From NCBI RefSeq assembly GCF_007279655.1, contig NZ_QKWN01000001.1:434001-498000 (forward strand): a stretch of DNA of 64,000 nt. The letters run 5' to 3'. Position 1 is the first letter of the stretch. Each line of letters opens with the position of its first letter. This DNA is from Robertkochia solimangrovi. Lineage in GTDB: Bacteria > Bacteroidota > Bacteroidia > Flavobacteriales > Flavobacteriaceae. A model generated the notes under the pieces. The model was not told where the DNA came from. It did not search any database and saw only the letters and a program-made list of their open reading frames with translations. Positions 23,201-41,885 of the stretch are shown piece after piece. A program made the position numbers and the translations under genes.

Positions 23201-23608
23201 GAGTTATTTGAAGTATATAAACAACAACAACAGTTAAGGAATGCTTTAGAAGAACAGCTACAGAATATGCAAGGTGAAGGAAATAAACAAAAAGCTGATG
23301 TGCTGATTAAAGAAATGGAACGCATTGAAAACTCATTATTAGAAAGAGGTTTCAACGAAAACACATTAAAGCGCATGCAACAACTCACCCATGAACTATT
23401 AAAATTAAAGAATGCCGCGCAGGAACAAGGTCAAGATAAAGAACGCGAAAGCAAGACAAATACCAAAAATTATACAAATACTTCCACAGATCAATCCCCT
23501 GAGCTTCAAGAATATTTAAAGGAGATTGAAATATTAAACAGACAAATATTACCTTTGCGCCAAAATTACAAAGAACGCGTACAGGAATACTTTAAAAAGA
23601 ATGATTGA
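20267..23608 (+). CDS. DUF4175-family large membrane protein
   Basis: 1113 residues. Hydrophobic segments at about 30-50, 58-80 and 155-180 are followed by a beta-rich domain (about 200-480) and then a very long glutamine/lysine/glutamate-rich coiled coil (about 500-1110) with low-complexity QQQ and EGEGKQ runs. Matches the Bacteroidota DUF4175 family, for which no biochemical role is established. It is transcribed with ybeY (8-bp overlap) and mnmG, an order I recall as common in Flavobacteriia. Glutamine and lysine content is far higher than in neighbouring proteins. The long coiled coil suggests a structural role in the envelope, which is inference. Confidence 0.85.
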   Translation: MSTLKTDHISIINSKLELFLRKYYTNDLVKGIILFIVIGLVYLLFSIAVEWLFWMDPMWRTLWFWLFVMVEILLFTRFIVFPLLYIFKLKKGLDHQEASKIIGKHFPEVQDKLLNLLQLKEQDKNSELVLASIAQRSEQLKPIPFQSAITFKSNIKYLKYLIIPSTILLLILLSGSLTGFSMGYSRMIHHNIAYTPPAPFEFLLINDSLTVLENSGIIIKTQTKGKLIPENIQIEYGGEKYFMNNLGEGRFEYDFENIKENIPFKLSANDVYSIPYEIEVIEVPRMLNLSMELDYPTYTGKKKEILNGTGNAQVPEGTKIKWIIDSRNTKNIKLSSKDTILVFQKETDQFKLYHSVYNNFNYNISSANEEVSNYDKLEFRIDVTKDKSPDISVISKKDSTYNQEDIFVGEISDDYGISKLELVYYPSGSSDNSNKIKIPIKKGNYDRFIRTFPGTIALPPAVPYEFYFEVTDNDGLRGGKSTRSSIFTYRRLSKSEKQDLQLQEQQQTIDKIDHSLEKFEEHQKELNTINDQNKEKQDLNYTDRKNIENYLERQQQQEQMMQKFNQDLKKNLDEFNKENPEQREFNELLKERLEREALKLKQNEELLKELEKYSDKINKDELSKKLEELSKQQQNDKRSLKQLLELTKRYYVSAKADKIKKDLKDLAKEQEDLSQSTNNNSQQQDSLNTKFDTLSKEMEQLQKENDQLRKPMELGMEKKNAEEIKQDQQKAQEELQKFEENNKNEAKQNAQKNQKNAAQKMRKMSQKMDQSMSMSGAQMLMEDTAMLRQILDNLVIYSFEQESIMEKLNDFNQKNPNFPKYLKKQNDLKSMFEHIDDSLFALSLRKPELTEQINTNITEVFYNLDKTLDNFANNNISQGIANQQYALTASNELADFLSEVLDNLQQSMSGSSGGGSQDFQLPDIIQSQQELNEKMQQGSKQNKEGEPQQQNGEEQGEGEGKQETKSGQGQNGQEQMSQELFEVYKQQQQLRNALEEQLQNMQGEGNKQKADVLIKEMERIENSLLERGFNENTLKRMQQLTHELLKLKNAAQEQGQDKERESKTNTKNYTNTSTDQSPELQEYLKEIEILNRQILPLRQNYKERVQEYFKKND

Positions 23609-24023
23609 ATTTAATTTTGAAATCGACTTTACTTTAAACAATCCGCTCACTCATAAAGAATGGATAGATAAAGTTATTCTTTCAGAAGAATGCCTAACAG
23701 GCGAAATCAATTATATCTTTTGTGATGATGAATATTTATATAACATCAACACAGAATTTCTCGACCATGACACCTATACCGATATTATCAGCTTCGATTA
23801 TACTGAAGGAAATATCATTAGTGGAGATATTTTTATATCGGTCGATCGTGTAAAAGAGAATGCACTAACCTACCAGACTTCCTTTGAAAATGAACTAAGA
23901 CGTGTAATGATACACGGCATATTACATTATTGTGGTTACAAGGATAAATCAACCGAAGAATCACAATTGATGCGCGAAAAAGAAGATGAAAAGCTTCTTT
24001 TGTTTCACGTGGAACAAAACTGA
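23601..24023 (+). CDS. ybeY: Endoribonuclease YbeY (rRNA maturation)
   Basis: 140 residues, normal length. YbeY is a zinc-dependent RNase acting in 16S rRNA 3' maturation and ribosome quality control. The motif is HGILHYCGYKDKS near 114-126. The first two metal-binding histidines are present, but the position of the third histidine (H-x3-H-x5-H in E. coli) is aspartate; I recall the GYKDK form as usual in Bacteroidota. The ATG lies inside the last codons of the DUF4175 gene, implying translational coupling. The last codons (FHVEQN) overlap a parS-like site at 24001-24016. Confidence 0.93.
   Translation: MIEFNFEIDFTLNNPLTHKEWIDKVILSEECLTGEINYIFCDDEYLYNINTEFLDHDTYTDIISFDYTEGNIISGDIFISVDRVKENALTYQTSFENELRRVMIHGILHYCGYKDKSTEESQLMREKEDEKLLLFHVEQN
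24001..24016. promoter_or_regulatory. parS-like ParB-binding site 1 (in ybeY 3' end)
   Basis: TGTTTCACGTGGAACA. It fits the widely conserved bacterial parS pattern TGTTNCACGTGNAACA at every fixed position. It overlaps ybeY codons for FHVEQ. Known: ParB loads at parS near the replication origin. A second site lies 1.9 kb to the right and the candidate oriC about 10 kb to the right. No parA or parB in the window. Confidence 0.75.
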
Positions 24024-24043
24024 AATCCCATAAAACATAATTT

Positions 24044-25915
24044 ATGTTTAACGAAGTATATGACGTTATCGTAGTTGGAGCTGGTCATGCCGGTTCTGAG
24101 GCTGCCGCCGCTGCTGCAAACATGGGCAGTAAAACATTATTGGTAACAATGAATCTTCAAACCATCGGACAAATGTCCTGCAACCCTGCCATGGGAGGAA
24201 TTGCAAAAGGTCAAATCGTAAGAGAAATTGATGCCTTAGGTGGTTACTCCGGAATCGTTACTGATAAAACCGCCATACAATTTAAGATGCTTAATAAGTC
24301 CAAAGGACCCGCTATGTGGTCTCCCCGAGCACAAAGTGACCGAATGCGTTTTGCAGAAGAATGGCGTTTAATGCTGGAGAGAACTCCCAATCTTGATTTC
24401 TACCAGGAAATGGTCGCTGGATTAATAATAGAAAACGAACAAATAAAAGGTATACGAACCTCTCTGGGAATAGAGATACGATCAAAAACGGTTGTATTAA
24501 CGAATGGAACATTCTTAAATGGATTAATCCATATAGGAACGAAACAATTAGGTGGTGGACGGGCAGGAGAAAAAGCTGCAACCGGTATTACTGAAGATCT
24601 AATAAAACATGGTTTTGAAGCTGGTAGAATGAAAACCGGAACTCCTCCCAGAGTTGATGGGCGTTCACTCGATTATTCTAAAATGACAGAACAACCTGGA
24701 GATGAAATACCAGAGAAATTTTCTTATTCCGATCAAACAAAACCGCTGGCAATTCAGAAAAGTTGTCATATGACCTATACTAGTGAATTGGTACATGATC
24801 TTCTTCGATCCGGCTTTGATCGATCACCGATGTTCAACGGACAAATACAGAGTACGGGGCCTCGTTACTGTCCTTCAATCGAAGATAAAATAAATCGATT
24901 TGCAGACAAAGATCGCCATCAATTATTCGTAGAGCCAGAAGGATGGGATACCGTAGAAGTATATGTAAATGGATTTTCAACCTCACTTCCGGAAGATATA
25001 CAATTCAAGGCCTTAAGGAGTGTTGAAGGATTTGAAAATGTTAAGTTCTTTAGACCAGGCTATGCTATAGAATACGACTACTTCCCTCCTACTCAGTTAC
25101 AGCATACATTAGAAACCAAACTGATCCAAGGGTTATATTTTGCAGGTCAAATAAATGGCACTACAGGATATGAAGAAGCCGCATCACAAGGACTCATGGC
25201 TGGAATTAATGCAAGTCTTAAAGTTCAGGAAAAAGGACCTTTTATTCTTAAAAGAAATGAAGCATATATAGGAGTACTCGTAGATGATCTTATCACTAAA
25301 GGCACCGAAGAACCTTACCGAATGTTTACATCCCGGGCAGAATATCGCACACTTTTACGACAGGATAATGCTGATATACGATTAACACCAAGATCATATG
25401 AACTAGGATTAGCGTCAGAGGATAGAATGAATCGTATGGAAGAAAAACAAAAAGCATCGAATGCATTCATTGAATTCTTTAAAGAAAGTAGTGTTAAACC
25501 AGAAGATATAAATCCAATATTAGCAGAACTGGGATCTTCACCTATGAAACAATCTGATAAAATGTTCAAAGTATTTAGCCGACCTAAGGTAACTTTAGAA
25601 CATATGAAACAATTAAATGAAGTTACAGCATACATTACCCAAAACAATCTGGATACCGAAGTTTTAGAACAAACGGAAATTCAAGTTAAGTATTCAGGTT
25701 ACATTGCGAAAGAAAAAAATAACGCTGATAAATTAAACAGACTTGAAGATATAAGAATCCCAAACAATTTTGACTATTCCAAACTTAAATCATTATCGTT
25801 TGAGGCAAGAGAGAAATTAAATAAAATAAAACCCACAACACTTTCCCAAGCTTCCAGAATAAGCGGCGTATCCCCGAGTGATATTTCAGTCATGCTAGTT
25901 TACATGGGTAGATAA
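24044..25915 (+). CDS. mnmG: tRNA uridine-34 5-carboxymethylaminomethyl modification enzyme MnmG (GidA)
   Basis: 623 residues, full length. FAD-dependent enzyme that works with MnmE to modify U34 of tRNAs reading split codon boxes. The FAD-binding GAGHAGSE is at 12-19; the family signatures CNPAMGG (46-52), [11 protein letters not shown] and [10 protein letters not shown] (about 195-205) follow, with the C-terminal helical GidA-associated domain from about 400. Third gene after DUF4175 and ybeY, 20 bp after ybeY. mnmG is one of the genes classically found near replication origins, in keeping with the flanking parS-like sites. Confidence 0.97.
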
Positions 25916-25933
25916 ACCAAAAAAAAGATTTAT

Positions 25934-25969
25934 AAAAATAAAGGGTTCCACGTGGAACCCTTTATTTTT
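25934..25969. promoter_or_regulatory. parS-like site 2 in a 36-bp perfect palindrome, also the mnmG terminator hairpin
   Basis: Bases 25934-25969 form a perfect 36-bp palindrome centred on CAC|GTG. The core GTTCCACGTGGAAC (25945-25958) matches parS, though the outermost bases are G/C instead of T/A. It starts 19 bp after the mnmG stop and its right arm ends in a T-rich run (TTTATTTTTT), so the RNA can also act as a terminator. Confidence 0.65.
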
Positions 25970-26017
25970 TATCCATACTTTTAAGCCATCAATACGACTA
26001 AAATAATATACGAGTAA

Positions 26018-26857
26018 ATGAATTGTAAAGACTATCTGGTAAGTAATGAATCCTTTGAATTGATTCCAAATACAGAACATGGATATCTAATAACTACACC
26101 ACAACCCGAACCAAACGAACTACCAAAATATTATGACAGTCCACAATATATATCTCATACAGATTCATACAAAACTTTCACTGAAAAACTATATGGCATT
26201 GTTAAGCAATACAATCTTAAACACAAAAAAAATATAATAGAAAAATATCATCCAACAGCGAAATCAATTTTAGATATAGGTTGTGGTACAGGAGAATTTA
26301 TTTTTCATTGCCAGGAAAATTATGAGGTTTTTGGTACAGAACCAAATCTAAAAGCACAAGCAATAGGATTAAATAAAAAACTAAAAATATACAATACCAT
26401 AGAACAATTACCCGAAAGAAAATATTCCGTAATAACCTTATGGCATGTATTGGAACATATTCCTAATCTTCAGGAAACCATTCAAAAAATAAAATTATTA
26501 CTAGAACCTGATGGAATAGTTATAATTGCAGTGCCCAACCATAGATCCTATGATGCCCAATATTACGGTTCCACCTGGGCAGCTTATGATGTTCCACGGC
26601 ATCTTTGGCATTTTGACAAATCCAGCATCACCTCACTTTTACAAAGCTTTGAATTAAATGTAGTAAAAATCTTACCAATGATATTTGATGCATTCTACGT
26701 TTCCCTCCTATCTGAAAAAAATAAGAACGGTAAAAACAATTTTTTGAAAGCGATGTTAACCGGATTAACTTCTAACATTAAAGCATTACAAAATCATGAG
26801 TACAGTTCTCTAATTTACGTAGTTCATAAACAAAAAAAAGCAAATAAGAGCGTTTAA
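26018..26857 (+). CDS. Class I SAM-dependent methyltransferase (Methyltransf_23 type)
   Basis: 279 residues. The SAM-binding motif I is ILDIGCGTGEF (about 84-94) and the post-II/III region includes LWHVLEHI (about 144-151). The N-terminal part (about 1-60) carries only one conserved-looking cysteine, so a C-terminal-type zinc cluster is not evident. Substrate unknown; relatives act on glycans, lipids or small molecules. It follows mnmG after the palindrome, so it may have its own transcript. Start chosen at ATG 26018. Confidence 0.85.
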   Translation: MNCKDYLVSNESFELIPNTEHGYLITTPQPEPNELPKYYDSPQYISHTDSYKTFTEKLYGIVKQYNLKHKKNIIEKYHPTAKSILDIGCGTGEFIFHCQENYEVFGTEPNLKAQAIGLNKKLKIYNTIEQLPERKYSVITLWHVLEHIPNLQETIQKIKLLLEPDGIVIIAVPNHRSYDAQYYGSTWAAYDVPRHLWHFDKSSITSLLQSFELNVVKILPMIFDAFYVSLLSEKNKNGKNNFLKAMLTGLTSNIKALQNHEYSSLIYVVHKQKKANKSV

Positions 26858-27027
26858 GGCATTACATAAGTTTAAAACAAGGTAACACTATAAATAAAAT
26901 CAAAACCCTCTTAAAACTTCTTAAAATAACCCATTTATAATAAACTTAAACTATAAAACGATACTTAATAATAATAAATATCTATAATATTAAAAAAGCT
27001 AAAAATACCAGCTAATAATAACTTTTA

Positions 27028-27035
27028 TATTTTTG
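27028..27035 (+). promoter_or_regulatory. TAnnTTTG promoter element for the Skp-like lipoprotein gene
   Basis: TATTTTTG, a perfect -7 match, 19 bp before the ATG at 27055. The gap 26858-27054 is otherwise very AT-rich and shows no ORF. Confidence 0.6.
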
Positions 27036-27054
27036 ACAAACTAAAAATCCTAAC

Positions 27055-27564
27055 ATGAAAAAACTAAGTTTACTTTTCTCAGCTACCCTACTTTTTATAG
27101 CATGTGAAAAAAATAAAATTGCCTACGTAGATAATTCCAGATTGATCAATGAGTATCAGGAAAAGGTAGATCTTGAAGCTGAATACAATGTAAAAATTCA
27201 AAAGTTCAGCCAAAAAGCAGATAGCATTGGAAGAATCTTACAACAAGAAGCTAAAGAATTCGAAAATCAGGTAAAAAACCTTTCGCAATCAACAGCTCAA
27301 CAAAAATACAATGAGATTCTTCAAAAGAGACAACAAGTAAGTCAACAATTCCAAAACGAAGAGAATCAATTAACTCAACAATCCCAACAACAAATTGATT
27401 CCCTAATCAAGAAAGTTAAAGCGTATGTAAAGACTTATGGAAAAGAAAATGGCTACACCTATATTCTGGGCGCTAATGACGCTGGTAGTGTTTTATATGG
27501 TGAAGAAAGTCAGGACATCACCAATACAATTCTCAAAAAACTAAATGACGATTATAAAAAATAA
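27055..27564 (+). CDS. OmpH/Skp-family lipoprotein chaperone
   Basis: 169 residues. A lipoprotein signal peptide with lipobox FIAC places the modified cysteine at about 20. After this comes IAYVDNSRLINEYQ, typical of the Skp/OmpH start, then a long glutamine-rich alpha-helical arm (about 45-120) and a C-terminal strand YTYILGANDAGSVLYG, again Skp-like. Known role: periplasmic holdase for unfolded outer-membrane proteins; the lipidated form is common in Bacteroidota. Monocistronic, with promoter and terminator. Confidence 0.87.
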   Translation: MKKLSLLFSATLLFIACEKNKIAYVDNSRLINEYQEKVDLEAEYNVKIQKFSQKADSIGRILQQEAKEFENQVKNLSQSTAQQKYNEILQKRQQVSQQFQNEENQLTQQSQQQIDSLIKKVKAYVKTYGKENGYTYILGANDAGSVLYGEESQDITNTILKKLNDDYKK

Positions 27565-27584
27565 AAAATCTTCATAAAAACTTA

Positions 27585-27613
27585 AAAGGCTCTTAATCAA
27601 GAGCCTTTTTTTG
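27585..27613 (+). terminator. Terminator of the Skp-like gene
   Basis: AAAGGCTCTT (27585-27594) pairs with AAGAGCCTTT (27599-27608), loop AATC, followed by a T run. Confidence 0.9.
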
Positions 27614-27638
27614 TACATTTCAATAATGCTATATTACT

Positions 27639-29138
27639 ATGAAGATAATCAAGTACCTCATCATCACTTTTGTATCCATTCTTATCCTTATTGCAATTAG
27701 CATTCCTCTCCTTAATAACTTTCTGGTCAATACAATTGAAAACCAACTTATAAAAGCAAATTCCAAAAACCTTACCATAACACCCGGTGCTATAGAAATC
27801 GATATTCTAAAAAGAAATATCAAATTAAAGAATACTAAAATCAACTATGTAACAGTAACAGAAAATGGGAATGTCATACTTCCAGAAATACACATATACG
27901 GTATACAGCCCAACTCCTACAAAAAGCCAGATTCCATTACTATAGATTCACTAACCATTGTGAAAGCTTTATACAGCCAGAAAAAACAGGATTCTATAAA
28001 CATAGATACAAAAACAAAAAAATCTACCCTACCCTATATTGCTATAAATTCTTTAAAAATTATCAAAGCTAAACATATCGTTCAGGACAAAAATTCAGAT
28101 ACAACCCTACATACGAAATCATTAAATCTAACCATTTCCAAGTTAAACTATAATACAAATAGTAAGGAAAAGATAGCTATAGACAGCTATAGTTATGATA
28201 TTGATTCAATCCACACACCTCTTGATGATTTTGAAAAACTATATATTGAAAATATTAAAGGAGATTCTACAACGATGAAAATCACTAATCTTCAAATCAG
28301 ACCTACTTATTCAAAAGAAGAGATGTCAGCCTTATTAAAGAAAGAGAAAGATTGGATAGATCTTAAGGTAAGATCATTAGTAATACATAACCAAAAGTTA
28401 AATTTTAAGGATGAAACTATTCAAATTAAGGCTGATTCGATCGAAATAGATAACGCTAAATTAAGCGTCTACAGAGATAAACAGATCGCTGATGATCACA
28501 GCTATAAACCATTATACAGTAAAAAATTAAGAGAATTAAATTTTCCTATTTTAATACCAAAAATAAAACTGAATAATGGCAGCATTGAATATGAAGAACG
28601 TATTCAAAATAACGGAAAACCTGGAATGATAACATTTACTGAACTAAAAGGTACTATTTATGATATAAATAACACAGGTATAAATAATAACACCACCATT
28701 GACCTCACTACAAAATTTATGGGTCACGCTCCCTTCACCTTTCATTGGAATTTCAATATAGCTGATAAAACAGATTATTTCAAGATGAAAGGAGAATTAC
28801 ATAACCTAACGGCTGCTAGTATCAATCAATTTACATTGCCCAATCTTAACGTACAATGCACAGGACATATTGATCATGTTTATTTTGACATATCCGCTAA
28901 CGATTACAAAGCCCAGGGAAAATATCTTATGGACTATAAAAACTTTAAAATTGAAATCGAGAAAAAAAATGAAAATCAGATCAATAAATTCCTAAGTAAT
29001 ATTGCTAATATCTTTATTAAAACGAATAAAGACAATCTAAAAGAAGTGCATATAGATGTGAAAAGAGATCCTGAAAAATCGTTTTTCAATTTCTTATGGT
29101 TATGTGTTAAACAAGGAACGCTACATAGCGTGACCTAA
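27639..29138 (+). CDS. AsmA/DUF748-like membrane-anchored protein
   Basis: 499 residues. One N-terminal transmembrane helix (about 5-30) is followed by a long beta-rich region with repeating short strands (ITIDSLTIVKA, LKLNNGSIEYEE-type) reminiscent of AsmA/TamB/DUF748 proteins, which bridge the envelope and move lipids. I cannot assign the family firmly from sequence alone. It stands alone on the plus strand and converges on the minus-strand genes at 29141. Composition is AT-rich and lysine/asparagine-rich. Confidence 0.5.
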   Translation: MKIIKYLIITFVSILILIAISIPLLNNFLVNTIENQLIKANSKNLTITPGAIEIDILKRNIKLKNTKINYVTVTENGNVILPEIHIYGIQPNSYKKPDSITIDSLTIVKALYSQKKQDSINIDTKTKKSTLPYIAINSLKIIKAKHIVQDKNSDTTLHTKSLNLTISKLNYNTNSKEKIAIDSYSYDIDSIHTPLDDFEKLYIENIKGDSTTMKITNLQIRPTYSKEEMSALLKKEKDWIDLKVRSLVIHNQKLNFKDETIQIKADSIEIDNAKLSVYRDKQIADDHSYKPLYSKKLRELNFPILIPKIKLNNGSIEYEERIQNNGKPGMITFTELKGTIYDINNTGINNNTTIDLTTKFMGHAPFTFHWNFNIADKTDYFKMKGELHNLTAASINQFTLPNLNVQCTGHIDHVYFDISANDYKAQGKYLMDYKNFKIEIEKKNENQINKFLSNIANIFIKTNKDNLKEVHIDVKRDPEKSFFNFLWLCVKQGTLHSVT

Positions 29139-31064: not shown

Positions 31065-33257
31065 CTAATCTAAATCCTCTCTTTTTCCTAATAATTCAAA
31101 ATCAAGATGACGTTTAACAAGATCAGTATTCTTTACTTTAACAAATACCTCATCACCTAATTGATATTCATTTTTTGTCACCTCTCCCACTATTGCATAT
31201 AGAGATTCATCAAAAACGTAATAATCATCTTTTATATCACGGATCCTTACGAGTCCTTCACATTTATTTTCAACGATCTCCACAAAAATACCCCACTCTG
31301 TTACTCCGGATATTACACCCAGGAATGATTCATCGTTATGATCTTCCATAAAACGGATCTGCATATATTTAACAGAATCTCGTTCAGCATTTGCAGCAAG
31401 ACTTTCCATACTTGATGAGTGGGAACATTTCTCTTCGTAATCTTCTTGTTTCACCGCATCACCACCGTCTAAATAAAACTGTAATAATCTATGAACCATA
31501 ACATCCGGATATCTTCGAATTGGGGATGTAAAATGCGTATAATAATCAAAAGCGAGACCATAATGGCCAATATTTTCTGTTGAATATGCCGCTTTACTCA
31601 TACTCCTGATCGCGAGGGTATCGACAAGATTTTGTTCCTTCTTGCCATGAACATCTTCCAACAACTCATTCAAAGAAGAAGTGATGGTCTTTTTTGATTT
31701 AAGATTAATACTATATCCAAAACGTTTAATTACACCCTGTAGTTGCATTAACTTATCGAAATCAGGTTCATCATGAACACGGTAAACAAAAGTCTTCTTT
31801 CGTTTTCCAATATATTCAGCAACCTTACGGTTTGCTAACAGCATGAATTCCTCAATCAGTTTATTGGCATCCTTAGCTTCCTTAAAATATACACCGGTTG
31901 GATTGTTATCGGCATCCAATACAAATTTCACCTCGACTTTATCAAAGGAAATCGCACCAGCTCTCATTCGTTTACCACGCATTATCTTTGCAAGCTTATC
32001 CAAAGTTTGAATAGCACCGGCAATTTCAGGTTCTACCTTATATGATTTGCCAGTCAATGAAACTTCATCTGATATGGTATCCCCTTGTGATTCTATTATT
32101 TCCTGAGCTTCTTCATAAGCAAATCTTCGATCTGAATACGTAACAGTTCTTCCATACCACTGGTTCACCACCATTGCCTCCTTATTCATTTCAAAAACTG
32201 CAGAAAATGTATATTTTTCTTCATTAGGCCTTAAGGAACAGGCATTATTGGAAAGTACTTCGGGTAACATAGGTACAACTCTGTCTACCAAATAAACAGA
32301 AGTTGCCCTTTCATAGGCTTCATCATCCAGGACAGTTCCTGGTACCACATAATGAGAAACATCAGCTATATGAATACCGATTTCATAGTTTCCGTTATCC
32401 AGCGTTCTAAAGGATAAAGCATCATCGAAATCTTTAGCATCTTTAGGATCTATCGTAAACGTAGTGATACCCCGCATATCTCTCCTTTTTTCGATCTCTT
32501 CCTGATGGATCCCGGTATCTAATTGATTCGCATATCTTTCTACCTCCGGAGGAAATTCATAAGGCAACCCATACTCAGCCAGAATCGCATGCATTTCAGT
32601 TTGCATATCGCCAGGTTTCCCTAATACATCGAGCACCTTACCATAAGGTGAATCGGCATGTTCAGGCCAATCGATGATTTCAACAATCACCTTATCCCCA
32701 TCTTCTGCCTTACCCATTTTATTCTTAGCAACGAAAATATCCGTATACATTCGCATATCGGTAGGAAGTACAAACGCAAAATTCTTTTGCATTTTAATAA
32801 TACCTACAAATTCGGTTTTCTTTCTTTCGAGTATCTTAACGATCTCACCCTCCAGTTTCTTCCCTTTCCTTCTGCGTGGAAAAACATAAACCTGTACCTG
32901 ATCACCATGCAGTGCCTTATTTAATAGGTTATTTGGCACAAATACATCATCATCCAAATCTTCACGTATAACATAAGCATTATTCCTACCTGTCATATCG
33001 ACGATGCCTTCGTAATAATTTTGATTAACTATAGCTTTATATTTTCCACGTTCTACCTCTACTATCCTTTTCTTTTCTTTTAATTGAACGAGCCGTTTTA
33101 TCAATAGATTCCTTCCACTCGTATCTGAAATTCCTAATCGCTGAGCAATTTGTTTGTAATTAAACAATTGTTCAGGATTGGTTTCCAATACCGTGAAAAT
33201 TCCTTTAGTCAGTTCATTTTTCTTTTGTTTTACAGCTCTTTTTCTTCTTTTCGACAT
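31065..33257 (-). CDS. rnr: Ribonuclease R
   Basis: 730 residues, normal length. Processive 3'-5' exoribonuclease for structured RNA and RNA quality control. Domains in order: N-terminal winged helix (about 1-80), cold-shock domains (about 85-240), catalytic RNB domain (about 255-600, with DPKDAKDFDDALSF near 270-283 holding the metal-binding aspartates) and an S1 domain (about 645-725). The ATG at 33257 is preceded by an AT-rich divergent gap with the small-gene promoter on the other strand. It is the last gene transcribed away from the candidate origin on the left. Confidence 0.97.
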   Translation of the reverse strand: MSKRRKRAVKQKKNELTKGIFTVLETNPEQLFNYKQIAQRLGISDTSGRNLLIKRLVQLKEKKRIVEVERGKYKAIVNQNYYEGIVDMTGRNNAYVIREDLDDDVFVPNNLLNKALHGDQVQVYVFPRRRKGKKLEGEIVKILERKKTEFVGIIKMQKNFAFVLPTDMRMYTDIFVAKNKMGKAEDGDKVIVEIIDWPEHADSPYGKVLDVLGKPGDMQTEMHAILAEYGLPYEFPPEVERYANQLDTGIHQEEIEKRRDMRGITTFTIDPKDAKDFDDALSFRTLDNGNYEIGIHIADVSHYVVPGTVLDDEAYERATSVYLVDRVVPMLPEVLSNNACSLRPNEEKYTFSAVFEMNKEAMVVNQWYGRTVTYSDRRFAYEEAQEIIESQGDTISDEVSLTGKSYKVEPEIAGAIQTLDKLAKIMRGKRMRAGAISFDKVEVKFVLDADNNPTGVYFKEAKDANKLIEEFMLLANRKVAEYIGKRKKTFVYRVHDEPDFDKLMQLQGVIKRFGYSINLKSKKTITSSLNELLEDVHGKKEQNLVDTLAIRSMSKAAYSTENIGHYGLAFDYYTHFTSPIRRYPDVMVHRLLQFYLDGGDAVKQEDYEEKCSHSSSMESLAANAERDSVKYMQIRFMEDHNDESFLGVISGVTEWGIFVEIVENKCEGLVRIRDIKDDYYVFDESLYAIVGEVTKNEYQLGDEVFVKVKNTDLVKRHLDFELLGKREDLD

Positions 33258-33618: not shown

Positions 33619-33861
33619 ATGAAGCACTTTGTAACTATAGCTACATTTACCTACCCACATGAATACCTTGTTCTTAAACTTATTCTGGATGAGGAACATA
33701 TCCCTTATTTTTTTCTGAATGAGACTATGGTTGCGATCTCTCCTTTTTATTCCAATGCCCTGGGCGGAATTAAGCTTCGCGTACACAAAGATTACGCAGC
33801 CTACGTTACTGAACTCATCAACGAACTCAATACTCCTGATTCTCCCTTACACATAGTCTGA
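33619..33861 (+). CDS. DUF2007-family small protein
   Basis: 80 residues from ATG 33619 (MKHFVTIATFTYPHEY). The pattern TFTYPHEYLVLKLILDEEHIPYFFLNE is the DUF2007 signature (putative signal-transducing domain; two short repeats of a ferredoxin-like half). Role unknown. The in-frame TTG nine codons upstream lies inside a promoter element and is rejected as the start. Last gene before the 548-bp gap. Confidence 0.75.
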   Translation: MKHFVTIATFTYPHEYLVLKLILDEEHIPYFFLNETMVAISPFYSNALGGIKLRVHKDYAAYVTELINELNTPDSPLHIV

Positions 33862-34409
33862 TTACACGAAACGTTTTCAACAATATTAATATATATATCT
33901 TTTTCTCTTTTTTTAAAATTAAAATATTGATTGTTATTATAGCTTGTTAATAACGGGTATAACTTTCTGAGGAAAAATTTGGAGATATGATTTATCGTTG
34001 ATTATTCAACGGTAATTAACAACCAATTGAAATATTAATTGCTTGAAAATTAAGTTGATTTAAGATTTGGTTAACATTTATCAACAGTTGTCAACAAAAT
34101 TTTTAAGGGTGAATATTTTAATAAATTTAGACTGTTAACAGTGTTGAATTCCATACATGACCGGTTGATGAAATGTAAATTCTTTATCAGATTTTCCTCT
34201 TGTATAATTCAATTATTTTTACAAATCCAGAGTTCAATTGAGATTTCCAAAATTAAATAATAGAATTAGTTCTAATATTATTAACAATTTGATGTATTTA
34301 TTAATTTATTGATAATTAAGTATTTATAAATTACAATTAACATTTATGTTTATAATCATAACAACCCGTGTTTTAGTACCTTTGTATCCTGTTTAAAAGT
34401 ATAATTCAT
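33862..34409. other. Candidate chromosomal replication origin (oriC)
   Basis: 548 bp with no ORF, strongly AT-rich. DnaA-box-like words cluster here: TTTTCAACA (33874-33882), TTATTAACA (reverse, 33945-33953), TTATCAACA (34078-34086), TTGTCAACA (34088-34096), TTATTAACA (34278-34286), plus AATTCAACA (reverse, 34142-34150) and an inverted pair CGTTGA/TCAACG (33996-34011). An especially AT-rich tract (33881-33930) could be the unwinding element. These words differ by one or more bases from the E. coli consensus TTATCCACA. Hand counts of plus-strand G and C in genes either side show the skew becoming G-rich to the right (see findings). Two parS-like sites lie 8-10 kb left. dnaA is not adjacent, which is common in Bacteroidota. 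Confidence 0.65.
34377..34384 (+). promoter_or_regulatory. TAnnTTTG promoter element for rpiB
   Basis: TACCTTTG, a perfect -7 match, 25 bp before the rpiB ATG, at the right edge of the gene-free gap. Confidence 0.65.
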
Positions 34410-34844
34410 ATGAAAATTGCAATTGGAAATGATCACGCTGGAACGGAATATAAGTTTGCTGTTGAAGCGTATTTAAAAAGTAAGGGTATCGAAGTGGTAA
34501 ATTATGGTACCGATGAGACCAGCAGTGTTGATTATCCAGATTTTGTGCATCCGGTTGCCGACGATGTAGCCAATAACCGTGTTGATTACGGAATTCTGAT
34601 CTGTGGAAGTGGAAATGGTGTTGCTATGACGGCAAATAAACACCAGGGAGTTCGGGCAGGATTATGCTGGACTAAAGAGATCGTTGAACTTACGCGTTCT
34701 CATAACAATGCAAATATATTATGCCTTCCGGCAAGATTTACTGCTAAGGAACAAGCGCTGGAAATGGTTCAAACTTTTCTCGATACCGAATTTGAAGGAG
34801 GCAGACATCAAAACAGGATTAATAAAATTCCTTTAGGCTGCTAG
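34410..34844 (+). CDS. rpiB: Ribose-5-phosphate isomerase B
   Basis: 144 residues, normal length. Interconverts ribose-5-phosphate and ribulose-5-phosphate in the pentose phosphate pathway (LacA/RpiB family). GNDHAG near 6-11 and the catalytic cysteine at 65 in LICGSGNGVAMTANK are present, as is the HNNANILCLPAR segment near 99-110. First gene right of the candidate origin; the CDF transporter gene begins 1 bp after its stop, so they form an operon. Confidence 0.96.
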   Translation: MKIAIGNDHAGTEYKFAVEAYLKSKGIEVVNYGTDETSSVDYPDFVHPVADDVANNRVDYGILICGSGNGVAMTANKHQGVRAGLCWTKEIVELTRSHNNANILCLPARFTAKEQALEMVQTFLDTEFEGGRHQNRINKIPLGC

Positions 34845-34845
34845 T

Positions 34846-35766
34846 ATGGCACATCTGCATGAACATGGACATAACCATCATGAACATGCTCCCTTAAAAG
34901 GTAAGAATCTGTTGATTTCAATTCTTCTGAATGTACTGATCACCTTATCTCAGGTAATCGGCGGGATCATTTCAGGTAGTCTTGCGCTTTTATCTGATGC
35001 ACTGCATAATTTTACCGATGTTGTTTCTTTGGTTATCAGCTATTTTGCTAATATTTTATCCAGAAAAAAAGCATCGACGAACAAAACGTTCGGTTATAAA
35101 AGAGCAGAGATTATCGCCGCATTCGTCAATGCAGTTACACTGATTATTATCGCGATAATATTAATGATTGAAGCTTATAAACGATTTGTCACTCCTGAAC
35201 CGATCGCTTCAGACCTCGTGATAATATTGTCTGTTTTGGGCATCGCTGCAAATGGATTCAGTGTATTTCTTTTAAAGAATGATGCAGAACGCAATATCAA
35301 TATGCGTTCTGCATATCTTCATCTTCTGACAGATATGCTGGCCAGTATTGCCGTTCTTGTAGGAGGTATTCTTATGAAAATGTTTGAGATCTATTGGGTT
35401 GATAGTGTTTTAACCTTTATGATCGGACTTTACCTTATATGGGTAGGTTATGACTTGTTAAGAAGTTCTTTGAGAATGCTCATGCTTTTTACTCCTGATA
35501 CCATTGATGTTAAAGAACTTGTACGTAAGGTTCATGCTGTTCCCGGGGTCAATAAATTACATCATATCCATGTCTGGAGTCTCAATGATGATGAAGTTCA
35601 TCTGGAAGCGCATCTCGATTTTAAAGAAGATATACGAATATCAGAATTCAATGGTGTACAACAACAAATCGAAGATTTGCTTCGAAATGAATTTGGAATC
35701 AATCATGTGAATCTGCAGCCGGAATTTAAAAAGAATGATTCTAAAGATTATATAGTACAGGATTAA
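34846..35766 (+). CDS. CDF-family divalent metal cation exporter
   Basis: 306 residues. A histidine-rich N-terminus (MAHLHEHGHNHHEHAP) is followed by six transmembrane segments, with the HxxxD metal sites LSDALHNFTDVVSL and HLLTDMLAS in the second and fifth, and a C-terminal cytoplasmic domain (about 215-295). Known family role: proton-coupled export of Zn2+ and related metals (CzcD/ZitB type). Operonic with rpiB upstream and the acetyltransferase 5 bp downstream. The metal specificity is inferred. Confidence 0.93.
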   Translation: MAHLHEHGHNHHEHAPLKGKNLLISILLNVLITLSQVIGGIISGSLALLSDALHNFTDVVSLVISYFANILSRKKASTNKTFGYKRAEIIAAFVNAVTLIIIAIILMIEAYKRFVTPEPIASDLVIILSVLGIAANGFSVFLLKNDAERNINMRSAYLHLLTDMLASIAVLVGGILMKMFEIYWVDSVLTFMIGLYLIWVGYDLLRSSLRMLMLFTPDTIDVKELVRKVHAVPGVNKLHHIHVWSLNDDEVHLEAHLDFKEDIRISEFNGVQQQIEDLLRNEFGINHVNLQPEFKKNDSKDYIVQD

Positions 35767-36588: not shown

Positions 36589-36736
36589 TATACATTTTTT
36601 TACGTAAATTTCAAAGTATCAATACGTTAAATACTGTTAATACGTTATTATTCAGAGAAGTTAAAATATTCAAAATCGTGCATATTATCTCTGATTTATA
36701 ATTACTATTGCACGTTAATTCAATTTGAGTTCAAAT

Positions 36737-37726
36737 ATGGTTTGTATTTTCAAACGATTGATGCTGATGTGGTTACTGGGAATTGGACTTTCCGTAAATG
36801 CACAGAATTATACTGATAATTCTGCCGGTCTTACTGCATTTACACCGATACCTCATGTACTTAATGTACTTAAAGAAAATGAAGGGGATATTAAGAATAC
36901 CGGTCTACCCATTGGTCATGATAAAACCATAAAACCTCTTAAGGCACTATATGATCCATACCTTCAAAAAATGTTAATCGATGAAATCGATAACAAACCC
37001 TATTGGAAAAAACTGATCGAGTCAAAGAAAATGGCGATCGGTGTTGTGGATCTTACCGATGTTGATAATCCGAGGTTTGCCAAGATCAATGGTGACGAAA
37101 TGATGTATGCAGCCAGTTTACCGAAAATTGCTGTGTTGCTTGCCGCCGAAGATGCTTTAGATCATGGCGAGTTGGAAGATACACCCGAACTTCGAAAGGA
37201 TATGCGGCTTATGATCTCTAAATCTAATAATCAGGCAACCACCAGAGTCATTGATCGAATAGGTTTTGAAAAGATCGAGTCTGTTATGACTGATAGCAGA
37301 TATCAGTTCTATGATAAAAAGAACGGTGGAGGATTATGGGTTGGTAAACGATATGCAGCCGGTGGAAATACGAATCGGGAGCCTCTTAAGAATCTGAGTC
37401 ATGCAGCAACCGTTAATCAGGTATGCAGGTTTTATTACCTGATGTTGAATGGTAAACTTGTATCAGAGGAAAGATCAAAAGAAATGCTGGAATATATGAA
37501 GGATCCGGAATTGCATCACAAATTTGTTAGTACACTTAACAGAATCGCTCCAAATGCTATATTATACAGAAAATCAGGAAGCTGGCAAAAGTGGCATGCA
37601 GATTCTGTTTTGGTATGGGGTAAAAAACGTAAATATATTTTAGTAGCTTTGATAGAGGATGGTAATGGCGAACAGATCATTAGGGATCTTGTTGTCCCGG
37701 TGGAGCGCGCCATCAACAGGAAATAA
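36737..37726 (+). CDS. Exported class-A beta-lactamase-like serine hydrolase (1)
   Basis: 329 residues from ATG 36737 (an in-frame TTG four codons upstream is less likely). A signal peptide ends near SVNAQ. The three class A motifs are present: SxxK as SLPK (about 127-130), SxN as SNN (about 162-164) and KTG-type KSG (about 278-280). No clear omega-loop ExxLN is visible, so it may be a peptidoglycan or small-molecule hydrolase and not a resistance enzyme. It is 14 bp upstream of the carrier/HEAT gene and probably co-transcribed. A second hydrolase of the same type faces it across the carrier gene at 40600-41877. Confidence 0.85.
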   Translation: MVCIFKRLMLMWLLGIGLSVNAQNYTDNSAGLTAFTPIPHVLNVLKENEGDIKNTGLPIGHDKTIKPLKALYDPYLQKMLIDEIDNKPYWKKLIESKKMAIGVVDLTDVDNPRFAKINGDEMMYAASLPKIAVLLAAEDALDHGELEDTPELRKDMRLMISKSNNQATTRVIDRIGFEKIESVMTDSRYQFYDKKNGGGLWVGKRYAAGGNTNREPLKNLSHAATVNQVCRFYYLMLNGKLVSEERSKEMLEYMKDPELHHKFVSTLNRIAPNAILYRKSGSWQKWHADSVLVWGKKRKYILVALIEDGNGEQIIRDLVVPVERAINRK

Positions 37727-37740
37727 CTATTTAACTATCG

Positions 37741-40596
37741 ATGACCGGATTCAAAGGAATTCTAACCCGTTTATTTAAAATTTTTGATATCCGCCCCGGT
37801 GAATTGCGTAAAACCATTTTACTGCAGTTAAATATTTTTATTTGTATTACAGTACTACTCATTGTTAAGCCTACGATTAATTCATTATTTCTTTCTGAAC
37901 TTACAGCAGACTCACTCCCAATGGGGTATGTGTTAACAGCGATAATGGCTGTAGTAGGATCCTATTTTTATAATCAAAGCCTTAAAAGACATAGCTTATT
38001 AACCATTATTGAGGTTACGAATATTTCTACCATTATAATTCTGATCATCTTTGCCGTGATCATCAAAAAGGATCTTTTCCATCAGTATTTCCTCTACTTT
38101 CCCTATGTATGGGTTTCTTTATTCGGACTCCTGACGGCATCACAATTCTGGATTTTGGCTAACCTGGTGTATAATGTCAGAGAAGCAAAACGCGTTTTTG
38201 GATTCATCGGTGCCGGAGCCATCGCAGGGGGGATCTTTGGAGGTTATGTTACCTCTATAATAGCAACGTTTACCAGTTCTAATAATCTGTTCTATATAGC
38301 GGCTGGATTGATGTTTTTTTGTATTCCTATCAATAGATATATCTGGAAGCATCATGTGAAAAGACTCAATAAATTCCAATATTACCGACGTCATAAACAT
38401 GCAGAGGAAAATCCGCTAAAACTTATACGGAATTCGGGTTTATTAACGCATCTTGCTTTGATCATCGGAATAGGTGTTCTGGTGGCAAAGCTGGTAGATT
38501 TCCAGTTTTCGGATTTTGCGGTTCGCAGTTTTCAGGATAAGGATTCATTGACTTCATTTTTTGGTTTTTGGTTCTCTACGCTGAGTGTTATTTCACTGTT
38601 CGTTCAATTATTCTTAACCAAAAGGATCGTGGGTCGTTTCGGGGTGGGTAAATCCTTGTATTTTCTACCGGTCGGAATTTTATTCGGGACGATTCTTTTA
38701 TTCTTTTTCCCGGTACTGGCCGTAGTAGTGATCATAAAAGTTGCGGATGGGAGTTTAAAACAATCGGTAAATAAAGCGGCAACAGAACTGGTTCTGATTC
38801 CTATATCTATTGAGGTTAAGAAACGAACAAAGACATATATCGATGTGGTTGTGGATAGTCTGGCCACGGGAATTGCAGGATTTATTTTAATATTCTTTAT
38901 TCATGGTTTCAGTATTTCTGCCACACAGGTTGGGTATATTACGCTTTTATTAATAGCTATCTGGCTGATTATTATCAAAAAAATAAAGGGTGAATATATA
39001 GCAACTTTTAAAGACGCCTTACAGGGAGAAGACGAGCACAAAGCAAAATCTATCATTGCTGAAAAGCCTGTAAGCTCTATTCTAAGTTCGGTAAAGAATG
39101 TACTAAAAGAAGGAACGGATAATCAGAAAATCTACATGCTAAATCGAATACTGGAAGAAAATGATGATCGTTTTTTCCCGGAACTAAGTGAGCTTCTCAA
39201 TTCTGAATCACCAAAGATCAGAGCACTTGCGATTGAAAATCTTTACTATATAAACACCTACGATGCCAGTGAACAGATAGGAAAACTTGTTCAGGATGGA
39301 GATACTCAGGTCACTATAGAAGCATTGAGATACCTTTTGAAACATCATCCGGAAGAAATGGTAATCAGTTATGATCAATTATTGTCGCATTCGGATAGGG
39401 TTATTGCCAATGCTGCTTTAATCGCAATGGCTGCGGAATTCAGGAACAGTGAAGTATTGAAGGATCGTTTTAATTTGAAAAGAAGGGTTAAAGAAGCTAT
39501 AGAGGATCTGAAAAATTCGCAGGAAGACCATTCGAAAATTTTAAGAGTGGTTGCAATTATGGAAGCAATAGGAATGGGACGTATTACAAACCATTACGAT
39601 TTCATTGAAAAACACATAGGCGAAACTCCCGGAGAATATCTGGAAGATGTACTGATCAGTTGTGCCAATACACTGGAACCAAAATTTATCGACCATATTT
39701 TACCCTACCTTACGCACCGCGAAACCAGAGAGATCGCAAAACGTGCCTTATACGTGTATGGTCCCGGATTGATCAATTATTTAACCGGCTTGTTACTGGA
39801 TGATGATATCTACGAAGAACATGAACATTTTATTCCTCAGGTAATAGAACATTTTGAAAGCCAGTCATGTGTCAATGCACTTATGCGTATAATGGATCAT
39901 TCCGATCATGATATAAAGACGGAAGCTGTTGAATCGTTGCGTCGATTAAAATGGAAGCACAACCACCTGATTATTCGGGATCATGTGATCGTTAGCAAGA
40001 TACTTGGGGAATGTGATCTATACCTGAAGACACTTTCTGTTATTCATTCTCAGATTCTTATACAATATAAAAAAAGCAATCGTCCGGACCTGAATCCTGA
40101 AGAGGATGAAGCACGTCGCGGACTGATTAATCTCTTAGAGAACAGACTTGATCGTCAGTTGTATCGAATATTTCACTTTTTGGGAATAAAGTATCCGCCC
40201 GGTGATGTCGATCCTGTCTTCGATGCGATCCTTAGCGGAAAGGAAGAACAACGGCTTAATGCTATTGAGTTTCTGGATAATATTCTTGAAATACAATTGA
40301 AGAAAGAATTGATTCCCATCACGGAGGCTATCATCGTCAATCAGGGAATGGAAGATGTCATCAGAAATCTGAATTTGAAAATACTAAGTGAGCTGGAGTG
40401 TTTCAGAATTATCCTGGAAGGATATGATCATAAGCTTAAACAGGCTGTGATCTATCTGATCGAACAAACAGGAAACCGGGATTATGTTCCTTTGCTGAAT
40501 GAAATCCTACGAACTACTCCCCTTACCGACCGTGTTAGAAAGCAGATCGAATCTACGCTGGAGATTTTACACTCAGAAAACACGATCAGGGAATAA
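37741..40596 (+). CDS. ATP/ADP-carrier-like (TLC/MFS) membrane protein fused to HEAT repeats
   Basis: 951 residues. The first 420 or so contain about a dozen hydrophobic helices with a glycine-rich GFIGAGAIAGGIFGGYV segment (about 154-174), resembling NTP/NDP exchangers of the TLC family. The remainder (about 430-945) is helical-repeat sequence of HEAT type, for example PKIRALAIENLYYI and DTQVTIEALRYLLKHHPEE. Known relatives: plastid and obligate-parasite ATP/ADP translocases, and free-living homologues with HEAT domains whose substrate is not established. It follows serine hydrolase 1 and ends 3 bp from the convergent serine hydrolase 2. Nucleotide transport is a family-based guess. Confidence 0.75.
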   Translation: MTGFKGILTRLFKIFDIRPGELRKTILLQLNIFICITVLLIVKPTINSLFLSELTADSLPMGYVLTAIMAVVGSYFYNQSLKRHSLLTIIEVTNISTIIILIIFAVIIKKDLFHQYFLYFPYVWVSLFGLLTASQFWILANLVYNVREAKRVFGFIGAGAIAGGIFGGYVTSIIATFTSSNNLFYIAAGLMFFCIPINRYIWKHHVKRLNKFQYYRRHKHAEENPLKLIRNSGLLTHLALIIGIGVLVAKLVDFQFSDFAVRSFQDKDSLTSFFGFWFSTLSVISLFVQLFLTKRIVGRFGVGKSLYFLPVGILFGTILLFFFPVLAVVVIIKVADGSLKQSVNKAATELVLIPISIEVKKRTKTYIDVVVDSLATGIAGFILIFFIHGFSISATQVGYITLLLIAIWLIIIKKIKGEYIATFKDALQGEDEHKAKSIIAEKPVSSILSSVKNVLKEGTDNQKIYMLNRILEENDDRFFPELSELLNSESPKIRALAIENLYYINTYDASEQIGKLVQDGDTQVTIEALRYLLKHHPEEMVISYDQLLSHSDRVIANAALIAMAAEFRNSEVLKDRFNLKRRVKEAIEDLKNSQEDHSKILRVVAIMEAIGMGRITNHYDFIEKHIGETPGEYLEDVLISCANTLEPKFIDHILPYLTHRETREIAKRALYVYGPGLINYLTGLLLDDDIYEEHEHFIPQVIEHFESQSCVNALMRIMDHSDHDIKTEAVESLRRLKWKHNHLIIRDHVIVSKILGECDLYLKTLSVIHSQILIQYKKSNRPDLNPEEDEARRGLINLLENRLDRQLYRIFHFLGIKYPPGDVDPVFDAILSGKEEQRLNAIEFLDNILEIQLKKELIPITEAIIVNQGMEDVIRNLNLKILSELECFRIILEGYDHKLKQAVIYLIEQTGNRDYVPLLNEILRTTPLTDRVRKQIESTLEILHSENTIRE

Positions 40597-40599
40597 TGT

Positions 40600-41877
40600 T
40601 TACCTATCCGGTCTCAGGATCTTATCTATTCTAGAGGCTAGTACATAATGATCATTTGCTGAATTCTTCCCCAGTACATTCGACATAAGACAAACCAGGT
40701 ATCGGGTACCGTCAGGATGTTCGACAATGGCAACTGAATTCATGTAGTTATATTTTGTACCCTGATATTCTTTACATCCTGAAGAGGTACCATCTTCATT
40801 CTTAGTACAACTGTAAAAGCTACCTGATTTAAAATATACGGCAGCTTCACGCAGTACCGGAGCATAGGCATATCGTATACGACGGTCGGTCATATACAGG
40901 AGCCTTTTCATTTCAAGACTGGATTCTTCATCCACGATTTTTCCCTGTTCCATTTTGATCATCCATTTCATAAGACCTATCGTGGTCCCGGTACTACCAC
41001 CCCTTCCCGGAATATAAGTTCCGGCTCCAGAGGTGAAGAATTTACCCAGTCGCCATTCATCTTCTGTAATTCCCAGATCTCGCAGTGGCTGATTGATCAT
41101 TTCAATCGCTATTTCCGAAAGTTCAGTTTTAGACCTGCTTTTGAAATATTCTTCGGATTGTTCAAAAGTCAGATCCGGGTAATCCTTTCCGAATGCCTGC
41201 ATCAACATAGCTTCACGCCACACCACGCTCGCAGCACCATTGTTACTTACGGAGATCATATGATCCAACCACTCAAACAAGGTGAAATCATCTGAGGCTG
41301 CAATTTTCCTTTTCGAGTAATTTTGAGTTTCCGGATCGAAAACAGGGACTGTGTGATGATCACTAAGTGCCCAGTTTCCGGCGTGGATCACTTTACTTTT
41401 CAACAAAGCTATCCGCTTCTCAAAATTATTGGGATATAGCTTTTTTAATTCTGTGAAAAAAGCGGTAAGAACGATCAGTTTTCCAACACTTCCTGGTTGA
41501 TAACTGGCATTTTCCCTGTGCAAGGCTATACGAACAGGATGGTCTTTAGTAATATCAAGGACACTGATTGAATAATTTTTATCGAGTCCGTGAAAAAGGC
41601 CTTCGATCTGAATCTGTAGATCAGGATCAGGGACGGGAAAACTATCGATCTCTTTTCCTCGCTTATCAGTCAGATTTAATTTAATCGAATCTAAGGGCCA
41701 ATCTGCTCCCGGGAGTATTGTTCCCTTGATCGTGCCGTTTTTGATCATCTGAAGACGTGCTAAACGCCTAATTCCTGTTCTTTCGTATCCATCGATGGGA
41801 TAGGTGTCGTTTTGAGTGTACTCAAGGAATCCCAGAGAACAAATAGACACGAAAAGTATGAAGGCCGTTATTTTCAT
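40600..41877 (-). CDS. Exported class-A beta-lactamase-like serine hydrolase (2)
   Basis: 425 residues from ATG 41877. The upstream in-frame TTG at 41889 would overlap the previous stop. N-terminal signal or anchor (MKITAFILFVSICSLGFLEY). An extra N-terminal domain of about 110 residues precedes the hydrolase domain, which has SVGK (about 128-131), SNN (about 210) and KSGSF (about 350). TGGRG-like GRGGSTGTT lies before the last motif. It starts 8 bp after the dikinase-like gene, so the two are co-transcribed, and it converges on the carrier gene with a 3-bp gap. Substrate unknown. Confidence 0.82.
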   Translation of the reverse strand: MKITAFILFVSICSLGFLEYTQNDTYPIDGYERTGIRRLARLQMIKNGTIKGTILPGADWPLDSIKLNLTDKRGKEIDSFPVPDPDLQIQIEGLFHGLDKNYSISVLDITKDHPVRIALHRENASYQPGSVGKLIVLTAFFTELKKLYPNNFEKRIALLKSKVIHAGNWALSDHHTVPVFDPETQNYSKRKIAASDDFTLFEWLDHMISVSNNGAASVVWREAMLMQAFGKDYPDLTFEQSEEYFKSRSKTELSEIAIEMINQPLRDLGITEDEWRLGKFFTSGAGTYIPGRGGSTGTTIGLMKWMIKMEQGKIVDEESSLEMKRLLYMTDRRIRYAYAPVLREAAVYFKSGSFYSCTKNEDGTSSGCKEYQGTKYNYMNSVAIVEHPDGTRYLVCLMSNVLGKNSANDHYVLASRIDKILRPDR

Positions 41878-41885
41878 AATGATGT

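What the first reader, a model, noticed from the sequence alone, without database searches (positions are those of the whole stretch)
33862..34409. Probable chromosomal replication origin between the DUF2007 gene and rpiB
Seen: a 548-bp gene-free AT-rich gap with a cluster of TTATCAACA, TTGTCAACA, TTATTAACA and TTTTCAACA words, which do not match the E. coli DnaA box exactly but resemble each other. Hand counts on the plus strand show the skew changing across it: in plus-strand genes, 28021-28380 has about 59 C to 45 G, while 35221-35520 has about 44 C to 62 G and 60301-60600 about 52 C to 85 G; in minus-strand genes, 31081-31380 has about 70 C to 28 G, while 47041-47340 has about 70 C to 43 G. 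Inference: leading strands diverge from here. Bacteroidota origins are often away from dnaA, so the absence of dnaA does not count against it.
Basis: partly seen in the sequence, partly recalled or inferred. Interest (0 to 1): 0.75.

Follow-up and report, generated by a model that had tools for sequence, protein, structure and literature searches.

The report
Chromosome replication origin upstream of rpiB
The AT-rich gap in front of the rpiB gene is almost certainly the place where this flavobacterium starts copying its chromosome, and a conserved DNA core in it, which sits beside the same gene in many related bacteria, suggests how the start site is built.

Summary
The finding holds up. On the window's 933-kb contig, sampled GC skew is negative left of the gap and positive in nearly all bins from about 20 kb to its right. 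A gene-strand-corrected change-point over 340 kb (274 ORFs) falls in the rnr-gap-rpiB interval; cuts by the nearby gene mnmG, reported as origin in two relatives, are over 40 log-likelihood units worse. Pooled over 61 relatives it lies within about 1 kb of the gap. The gap holds a conserved ~113-bp core: an inward DnaA box, an AT-rich stretch, a trinucleotide array, an inward DnaA box. A DNA-only model of it has one strong hit in the genome; its top hits in the 29 best-scoring other genomes of the order lie beside rpiB in 25. The only exact parS-like site is 10 kb away.

This is oriC, a new member of a known kind. The array (5'-NAT-3') is ordered opposite to the published DnaA-trio; whether it is a variant unwinding element is open. 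Function was not tested.

The parts
33862..34409 (.). Intergenic gap: the origin region (oriC)
33862..33974 (+). Conserved origin core (~113 bp), aligned from 65 of 68 gaps; single strong hit in the own genome (54.5 bits, E 4.4e-14; next 14.8 bits)
33874..33882 (+). DnaA box A (TTTTCAACA here; its first eight bases are TTATCAAC in 21 and TTATCCAC in 11 of 65 rows), facing the AT-rich stretch
33883..33925 (.). AT-rich stretch between the boxes, probable DNA unwinding element (inferred)
33926..33940 (+). Trinucleotide array, five 5'-NAT-3' steps in relatives (steps 3 and 5 from box B lack the central A in the window), 4 bp from box B
33945..33953 (-). DnaA box B (TTATTAACA here; CTATTAACA in 18 and CTATCCACA in 6 of 65 rows), facing the array
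33954..33962 (-). Weak outer box-like word (TTATACCCG) abutting box B; GGTATAAC-like and conserved on the + strand
34013..34021 (+). Weak box-like word TAATTAACA
34078..34096 (+). Tandem pair of box-like words TTATCAACA-G-TTGTCAACA, 10 bp apart
34278..34286 (+). Box-like word TTATTAACA, aligned with TTATCAACA, TTATTAACA or TTATTAACG in six near relatives
34307..34315 (-). Weak box-like word TTATCAATA
34377..34384 (+). TACCTTTG, probable -7 element (TAnnTTTG, recalled Bacteroidota consensus) of the rpiB promoter
34410..34844 (+). rpiB (LacAB_rpiB family), right neighbour of the origin
33619..33861 (+).
31065..33257 (-). RNase R (rnr), divergent from rpiB
24001..24016 (+). parS-like 16-mer TGTTTCACGTGGAACA, the only exact match of TGTTNCACGTGNAACA in the genome, 10 kb from the gap
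24044..25915 (+). mnmG (gidA), an origin-side indicator gene in other bacteria (recalled)

Best explanation
The gap is the chromosomal origin of replication (oriC) of a Flavobacteriaceae bacterium (nearest named relative by RpiB: Zhouia amylolytica). Shown by sequence: replication strand asymmetry reverses here, and a single-copy conserved core of two inward-facing DnaA boxes around an AT-rich stretch and a trinucleotide array lies at the reversal. Inferred: DnaA, made from a gene on another contig, binds box B (with the weak abutting outer box) and box A, grows as an oligomer along the trinucleotide array, melts the AT-rich stretch and lets DnaB be loaded for two diverging forks. The further boxes at 34.01-34.32 kb would support or regulate this, and the right end of the gap probably also carries the rpiB promoter. 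The location is well supported; the opening mechanism is inference (about 0.6).
For: Skew along C11: every 10-kb bin sampled from 1 to 484 kb is negative; every bin sampled from 484 to 780 kb is positive, the first only +0.002 (exceptions under evidence against). Strand-corrected third-position change-point (274 ORFs, 340 kb): best cut after rnr (33257), tied with a cut after rpiB (34844, -0.2); no cut -311.9; cuts around mnmG -41.7 to -55.7, and 1 of 1000 gene bootstraps falls at 23-27 kb. Fourfold sites alone: same best cut, cut just right of mnmG (26857) -11.5. Pooled over 61 relatives the best offset is +0.5 kb from the gap middle, -54.5 at -1.5 kb and -59.4 at +1.5 kb. Conserved core at 28.7-61.8 bits in 65 of 68 gaps against at most 8.0 in 134 flanks, though the gap rows are those the profile was trained on. 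One strong hit of the core model in the own genome (150 of 3485 first-look candidates were scored). Hits found without using genes lie by rpiB in 25 of 29 loci, 11 of 15 outside the own family. Skew sampled in long chromosomes switches in the interval holding rpiB in Lacinutrix neustonica and Maribacter thermophilus, and at the core hit in two genomes of other families, G064 clearly and G019 weakly. parS-like site 10 kb away. DnaA has DnaA_N, ATPase and helix-turn-helix domains.
Against: Raw cumulative skew in the window is slightly lower at 52-54 kb than at the gap. On the right of the contig the bin at 780 kb is -0.024, two 5-6-kb halves are just below zero and the last 10 kb is -0.032. Single relatives are noisy: the gap is within 2 lnL of the best cut in 31 of 61 and is itself the best cut in 8 of 61; in the pool the exact gap middle is 5.7 lnL below the offset +0.5 kb. 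Of three named chromosomes sampled, Maribacter litopenaei is mixed with no clean flip. In the window boxes A and B are 2 mismatches from TTATCCACA and the array is degenerate. Box density is not unique in the genome. Three gaps carry the core only weakly, and 4 of 29 order-wide hits are not beside rpiB. A dif-like search found nothing above control, so the terminus is unknown.
Confidence: 0.94

Rival explanations
1. The true origin lies next to mnmG and the parS-like site, about 8-10 kb to the left, as origin-finding software reported for two related genera; the rnr-rpiB gap is only a conserved regulatory region.
For: Ori-Finder 2022 placed oriC by mnmG in Mariniflexile litorale and Algorimicrobium (passages read); mnmG and the parS-like site are in the window.
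Against: Cuts around mnmG are 41.7-55.7 lnL worse with third positions and at least 11.5 worse with fourfold sites; pooled relatives reject offsets of 1.5 kb and more; the core model's one strong hit is in the gap. mnmG lies about 7-23 kb from rpiB in the five relatives checked (positions), so mnmG as a nearby indicator gene fits both readings. The Mariniflexile paper's text and figure legend contradict each other.
Confidence: 0.03
2. An ordinary AT-rich promoter region between rnr and rpiB whose DnaA-like words regulate those genes; the skew change here is a coincidence of gene orientation.
For: A TAnnTTTG sits at -33 from rpiB here and occurs within 120 bp upstream in 43 of 67 relatives, against 43 of 580 control spans, which are mostly coding and so a lenient control; box clusters also occur elsewhere, for example upstream of dnaB.
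Against: The change-point is computed with gene strand taken out; in other families where rnr is not in the ~3-kb locus the core still sits by rpiB, and in the two sampled the skew switches there.
Confidence: 0.02
3. Replication starts at dnaA on contig C6.
For: A common arrangement in bacteria (general knowledge).
Against: The first 20 kb of C6, with dnaA inside, has positive skew throughout; eight boxes within 1 mismatch are scattered over it; the core model lists nothing on C6 up to E 10.
Confidence: 0.01

Closest known systems
DnaA-dependent bacterial oriC (E. coli, B. subtilis, H. pylori types)
   Same: AT-rich intergenic region at the strand-asymmetry switch, clustered DnaA boxes, boxes flanking an AT-rich stretch, a DnaA protein with its helix-turn-helix domain.
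   Different: Not beside dnaA but upstream of rpiB; box words in this species mostly TT(A/G/T)T(C/T)AACA.
BUS / DnaA-trio unwinding module (PMC6669920 passages; PMC8287927 passages and part 1 of its results section; PMC8235120 passages)
   Same: Two abutting DnaA boxes, the outer one weak here, a short spacer, then a trinucleotide array in which a central A is frequent, then an AT-rich stretch.
   Different: From the box the array reads 3'-TAN-5' (5'-NAT-3'), not 3'-GAT-5'; spacer 4 bp; in the window only 2 consecutive steps keep the central A. The published rule finds a run of 5 from box A in the window, but 128 of 500 shuffles do as well. That the box reads 5'-TTATCCACA-3' towards the trios in the published layout is partly recalled.
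Predicted oriCs of Mariniflexile litorale, Algorimicrobium bowmanii and Elizabethkingia meningoseptica (Ori-Finder; passages read)
   Same: Order shared with these genera (recalled); origin predicted with the help of skew, away from dnaA in Mariniflexile and Elizabethkingia.
   Different: The first two are named by mnmG; the Elizabethkingia passages give coordinates, not neighbours. The passages seen mention neither rpiB nor a conserved core.

Membership tests
Bacterial chromosomal oriC | Strand asymmetry switches from minus to plus | tested here: met
   whole-replicon curve not available (23 contigs)
Bacterial chromosomal oriC | DnaA boxes more than chance | tested here: met
   9 vs 3.0, 5 of 2000 shuffles; relatives 496 vs 239 expected, 66 of 67 above the mean of their own 20 shuffles; but other spans of the genome are as dense
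Bacterial chromosomal oriC | AT-rich unwinding element | tested here: inconclusive
   AT-rich conserved stretch is present; melting not tested
Bacterial chromosomal oriC | One per chromosome | tested here: inconclusive
   one strong core hit, next at noise; C16, C18, C19, C20, C21 keep one sign at the 2-3 places sampled, C14 is mixed (+0.010, -0.002, +0.057, -0.051), C22 and C23 were not sampled and the other contigs at one end only
Bacterial chromosomal oriC | Copy-number peak in growing cells; autonomous replication; DnaA binding | not testable with these tools
   needs reads or bench work
BUS / DnaA-trio module | DnaA box with at most 2 mismatches followed within 16 bp by at least 3 steps of 3'-NAN-5' | tested here: inconclusive
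   met in the window only at box A, by a T-rich run at shuffle level; at box B, spacer 0-6, the run is 2 in the window and 3 or more in 27 of 65 rows (in a few rows, such as L094, L101 and L086, the script picked another box)
BUS / DnaA-trio module | Trio consensus 3'-GAT-5' | tested here: not met
   steps from box B outwards are mostly 5'-TAT, TAT, GAT or GGT, GAT, AAT (TAT 39, TAT 63, GAT 28 and GGT 20, GAT 36, AAT 50 of 65), i.e. 3'-TAN-5'
Origin adjacent to mnmG | Change-point in an intergenic region by mnmG | tested here: not met
   -41.7 to -55.7 lnL with third positions

The most novel reading that the evidence does not exclude
Flavobacteriales (and perhaps other Bacteroidota, family f36 here) open their origin with a reverse-order DnaA-trio: DnaA loaded at box B runs along 3'-TAN-5' steps (5'-GAT-GAT-TAT-TAT) instead of 3'-GAT-5', in a core anchored to rpiB since before the families of the order split.
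Probability: 0.35. Interest if true: 0.65.

Novelty: new member of a known kind. Interest (0 to 1): 0.45.

Why it matters
It fixes the origin to a few hundred bases in a large order in which genome reports have pointed to dnaA by default or to mnmG, and it gives a searchable core that finds the site without gene annotation. That would allow growth-rate estimates from sequencing depth, origin-based plasmids, and a direct test of whether DnaA-trios can have another order.

Tried and rejected
A double-box pattern (TTDTHMACA-N-TTDTHMACA) is gap-specific (0 elsewhere in 1.26 Mb of the same loci) but present in only 11 of 68 gaps, so it is not the general mark. Box density alone was rejected as a criterion. 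A dif-like terminus search was below control level (56 matches against 95 for the reversed pattern), so no terminus claim. The published BUS rule is too loose in such AT-rich DNA: 394 of 500 shuffles reach 3 steps. Outside the order, 12 weak core hits of the phylum search have no rpiB match in their loci of 2.1-3.1 kb; those of family f36 look alike by eye only. Of the four order hits without rpiB (L223, L224, L236, L239), the ORFs of the first three were listed and the hits were not explained; L239 comes from a 0.6-Mb genome. Rfam (gathering threshold) and tRNA scans of the window found nothing. Rows dropped: 13 of 80 loci without a definable gap, 6 of 67 shorter than 18 kb, 3 of 68 weak core rows left out of the alignment. 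Papers: searches with rpiB and origin terms found none; the other searches gave listings in which, beyond the Mariniflexile, Algorimicrobium and Elizabethkingia reports, I saw nothing on origins of this order except the Blattabacterium paper PMC2768785, whose passages place that endosymbiont's origin in dapB by skew, without dnaA or DnaA boxes. Passages of PMC10225481, PMC6323995 and PMC7858055 gave nothing on it. Supplements were not read (none allowed).

Full report
What was checked. The gap is 33862-34409, between a small ORF ending at 33861 and rpiB starting at 34410. rpiB matches PF02502, rnr has RNB, cold-shock and S1 domains; the small ORF has no Pfam match at E 0.001. The window is C11:434001-498000 of a 4,407,270-base, 23-contig genome; C11 is 933,514 bases, so the gap is near C11:468 kb, in the middle of a long contig. 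The nearest named relative by RpiB is Zhouia amylolytica, 83%; the own genome may be left out of that list.

Strand asymmetry. Sampled 10-kb bins of C11 are negative up to 484 kb and positive from there to 780 kb; the two bins holding and following the gap (464-484 kb) are still weakly negative (-0.038, -0.039). Further right there are exceptions: -0.024 at 780 kb and -0.032 in the last 10 kb. The raw cumulative curve of the window is a little lower at 52-54 kb than at the gap, where most genes lie on the minus strand. I therefore took gene strand out: with third codon positions of 274 ORFs over 340 kb, the best single cut is the interval from the end of rnr to the end of rpiB; the next cuts are 1.5-4.1 lnL worse over the following 2 kb, and no cut is 311.9 worse. 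Fourfold sites alone give the same best cut with less resolution: cuts from 29.1 to 37.7 kb are within 5.7 lnL. Of 1000 gene bootstraps, 595 fall at 31.0-37.7 kb, 357 at 27.0-31.0 kb (a cut at 31008 is the same place when rnr was not drawn), 38 further right, 1 at 23-27 kb and 9 elsewhere.

Relatives. Of 80 named loci, 67 have a definable gap upstream of rpiB; 13 were dropped. Of these 67, 61 are at least 18 kb long. Pooled, the cut peaks at +0.5 kb from the gap middle (the middle itself -5.7) and falls by 54-59 lnL at 1.5 kb on either side; single loci are noisy, 31 of 61 within 2 lnL. In chromosomes sampled every 200 kb, Lacinutrix neustonica switches from minus to plus between 2.22 and 2.40 Mb (rpiB 2.29, mnmG 2.31 Mb) and Maribacter thermophilus between 3.02 and 3.20 Mb (rpiB 3.04, mnmG 3.03 Mb), each with single stretches of the opposite sign elsewhere; Maribacter litopenaei is mixed throughout.

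The core. An iterative profile started from the window finds the same element in 65 of 68 gaps, on the rpiB strand in each; three are weak (L074, L080, L096). The 65-row alignment shows box A (positions 1, 2, 4, 7 and 8 invariant; TTATCAAC in 21 and TTATCCAC in 11 rows), an AT-rich stretch, five NAT steps, a 4-bp spacer, box B (TGTTAATAG in 18 and TGTGGATAG in 6 rows, top strand) and GGTATAACTTT.

A gene-blind test. A sequence-only model of the core gives one strong hit in the own genome, 54.5 bits, against 14.8 for the next; 150 of 3485 first-look candidates were scored. Over 119 genomes of the order 86 have a hit at E 0.1 or less, a threshold close to noise; the 15 of the own family (own genome included) all hit at 6e-5 or better. 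Some own-family genomes may be those of training rows. The top hits of the 29 best-scoring other genomes lie by rpiB in 25: 14 of 14 in the own family, 11 of 15 in other families, where rnr is not matched in the ~3-kb locus. In the two other-family genomes sampled, skew switches around the hit, clearly in G064 (-0.030 at 1.81 Mb, +0.079 at 1.85 Mb), weakly in G019 (-0.033, -0.002, then +0.022). Over 148 genomes of the phylum 28 hit at E 0.01: 15 of the own family, 1 more of the order, beside rpiB, and 12 outside the order without rpiB in the locus.

Other origin signs. The only exact match of the parS-like 16-mer lies at window 24001-24016, before mnmG. dnaA is intact (475 aa, three DnaA domains) on C6.

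Mechanism, inferred. The order outer weak box, box B, spacer, array, AT-rich stretch, box A resembles the BUS layout described for B. subtilis and H. pylori. The published trio is 3'-GAT-5', written 5'-CTA-3' on the complementary strand. Here the box strand reads ATA-ATA-A(T/C)C-ATC-ATT, the opposite order, with the central A (on the other strand) kept at steps 1 to 5 in 64, 65, 30, 44 and 52 of 65 rows. That paper reports that reversing the array's polarity in H. pylori blocks opening, so either DnaA here reads another order or the array has another role. In the window itself step 3 is TGT and step 5 is ATT.

Prior knowledge. Predicted origins exist for relatives. No paper found by my searches (and the listings named under Tried and rejected) names rpiB as the neighbour or describes the core, but DoriC entries and supplements were not seen.

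Noticed in passing
L111 (own contig C2) 10023-10571, words also in the intergenic stretch 10278-10446: Up to 11 DnaA-box-like words per 548 bp, denser than in the origin gap, around the upstream region of dnaB (next gene accA): perhaps DnaA regulation of the replicative helicase gene.
   Followed up: partly
window 25944-25959: A second parS-like palindrome, GGTTCCACGTGGAACC (2 mismatches), just after mnmG.
   Followed up: no
window 20267-29138: Low-GC stretch (down to 0.29) with A in excess of T on the plus strand (AT skew up to +0.31), next to the origin.
   Followed up: no
window 37741-40596: 951-aa protein joining a TLC ATP/ADP-transporter or MFS-like membrane part with HEAT repeats.
   Followed up: no
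window 36725-37726 and 40600-41889: Two Beta-lactamase2-family proteins flank that transporter; role unknown.
   Followed up: no
L261, L262, L263, L269: Weak core hits in family f36 outside the order show GATGATGAT-like repeats next to TGTGGA or TGTGAA words: possibly the same unwinding layout without rpiB.
   Followed up: partly
L223, L224, L236, L239: Core hits in the order without rpiB beside them; possible moved origins or chance.
   Followed up: partly
G001 (Lacinutrix neustonica) and G002 (Maribacter litopenaei) records: The dnaA reading frame carries stops in both records and mnmG is split in G001, which may mean sequencing errors; G002 also has a scrambled skew.
   Followed up: no
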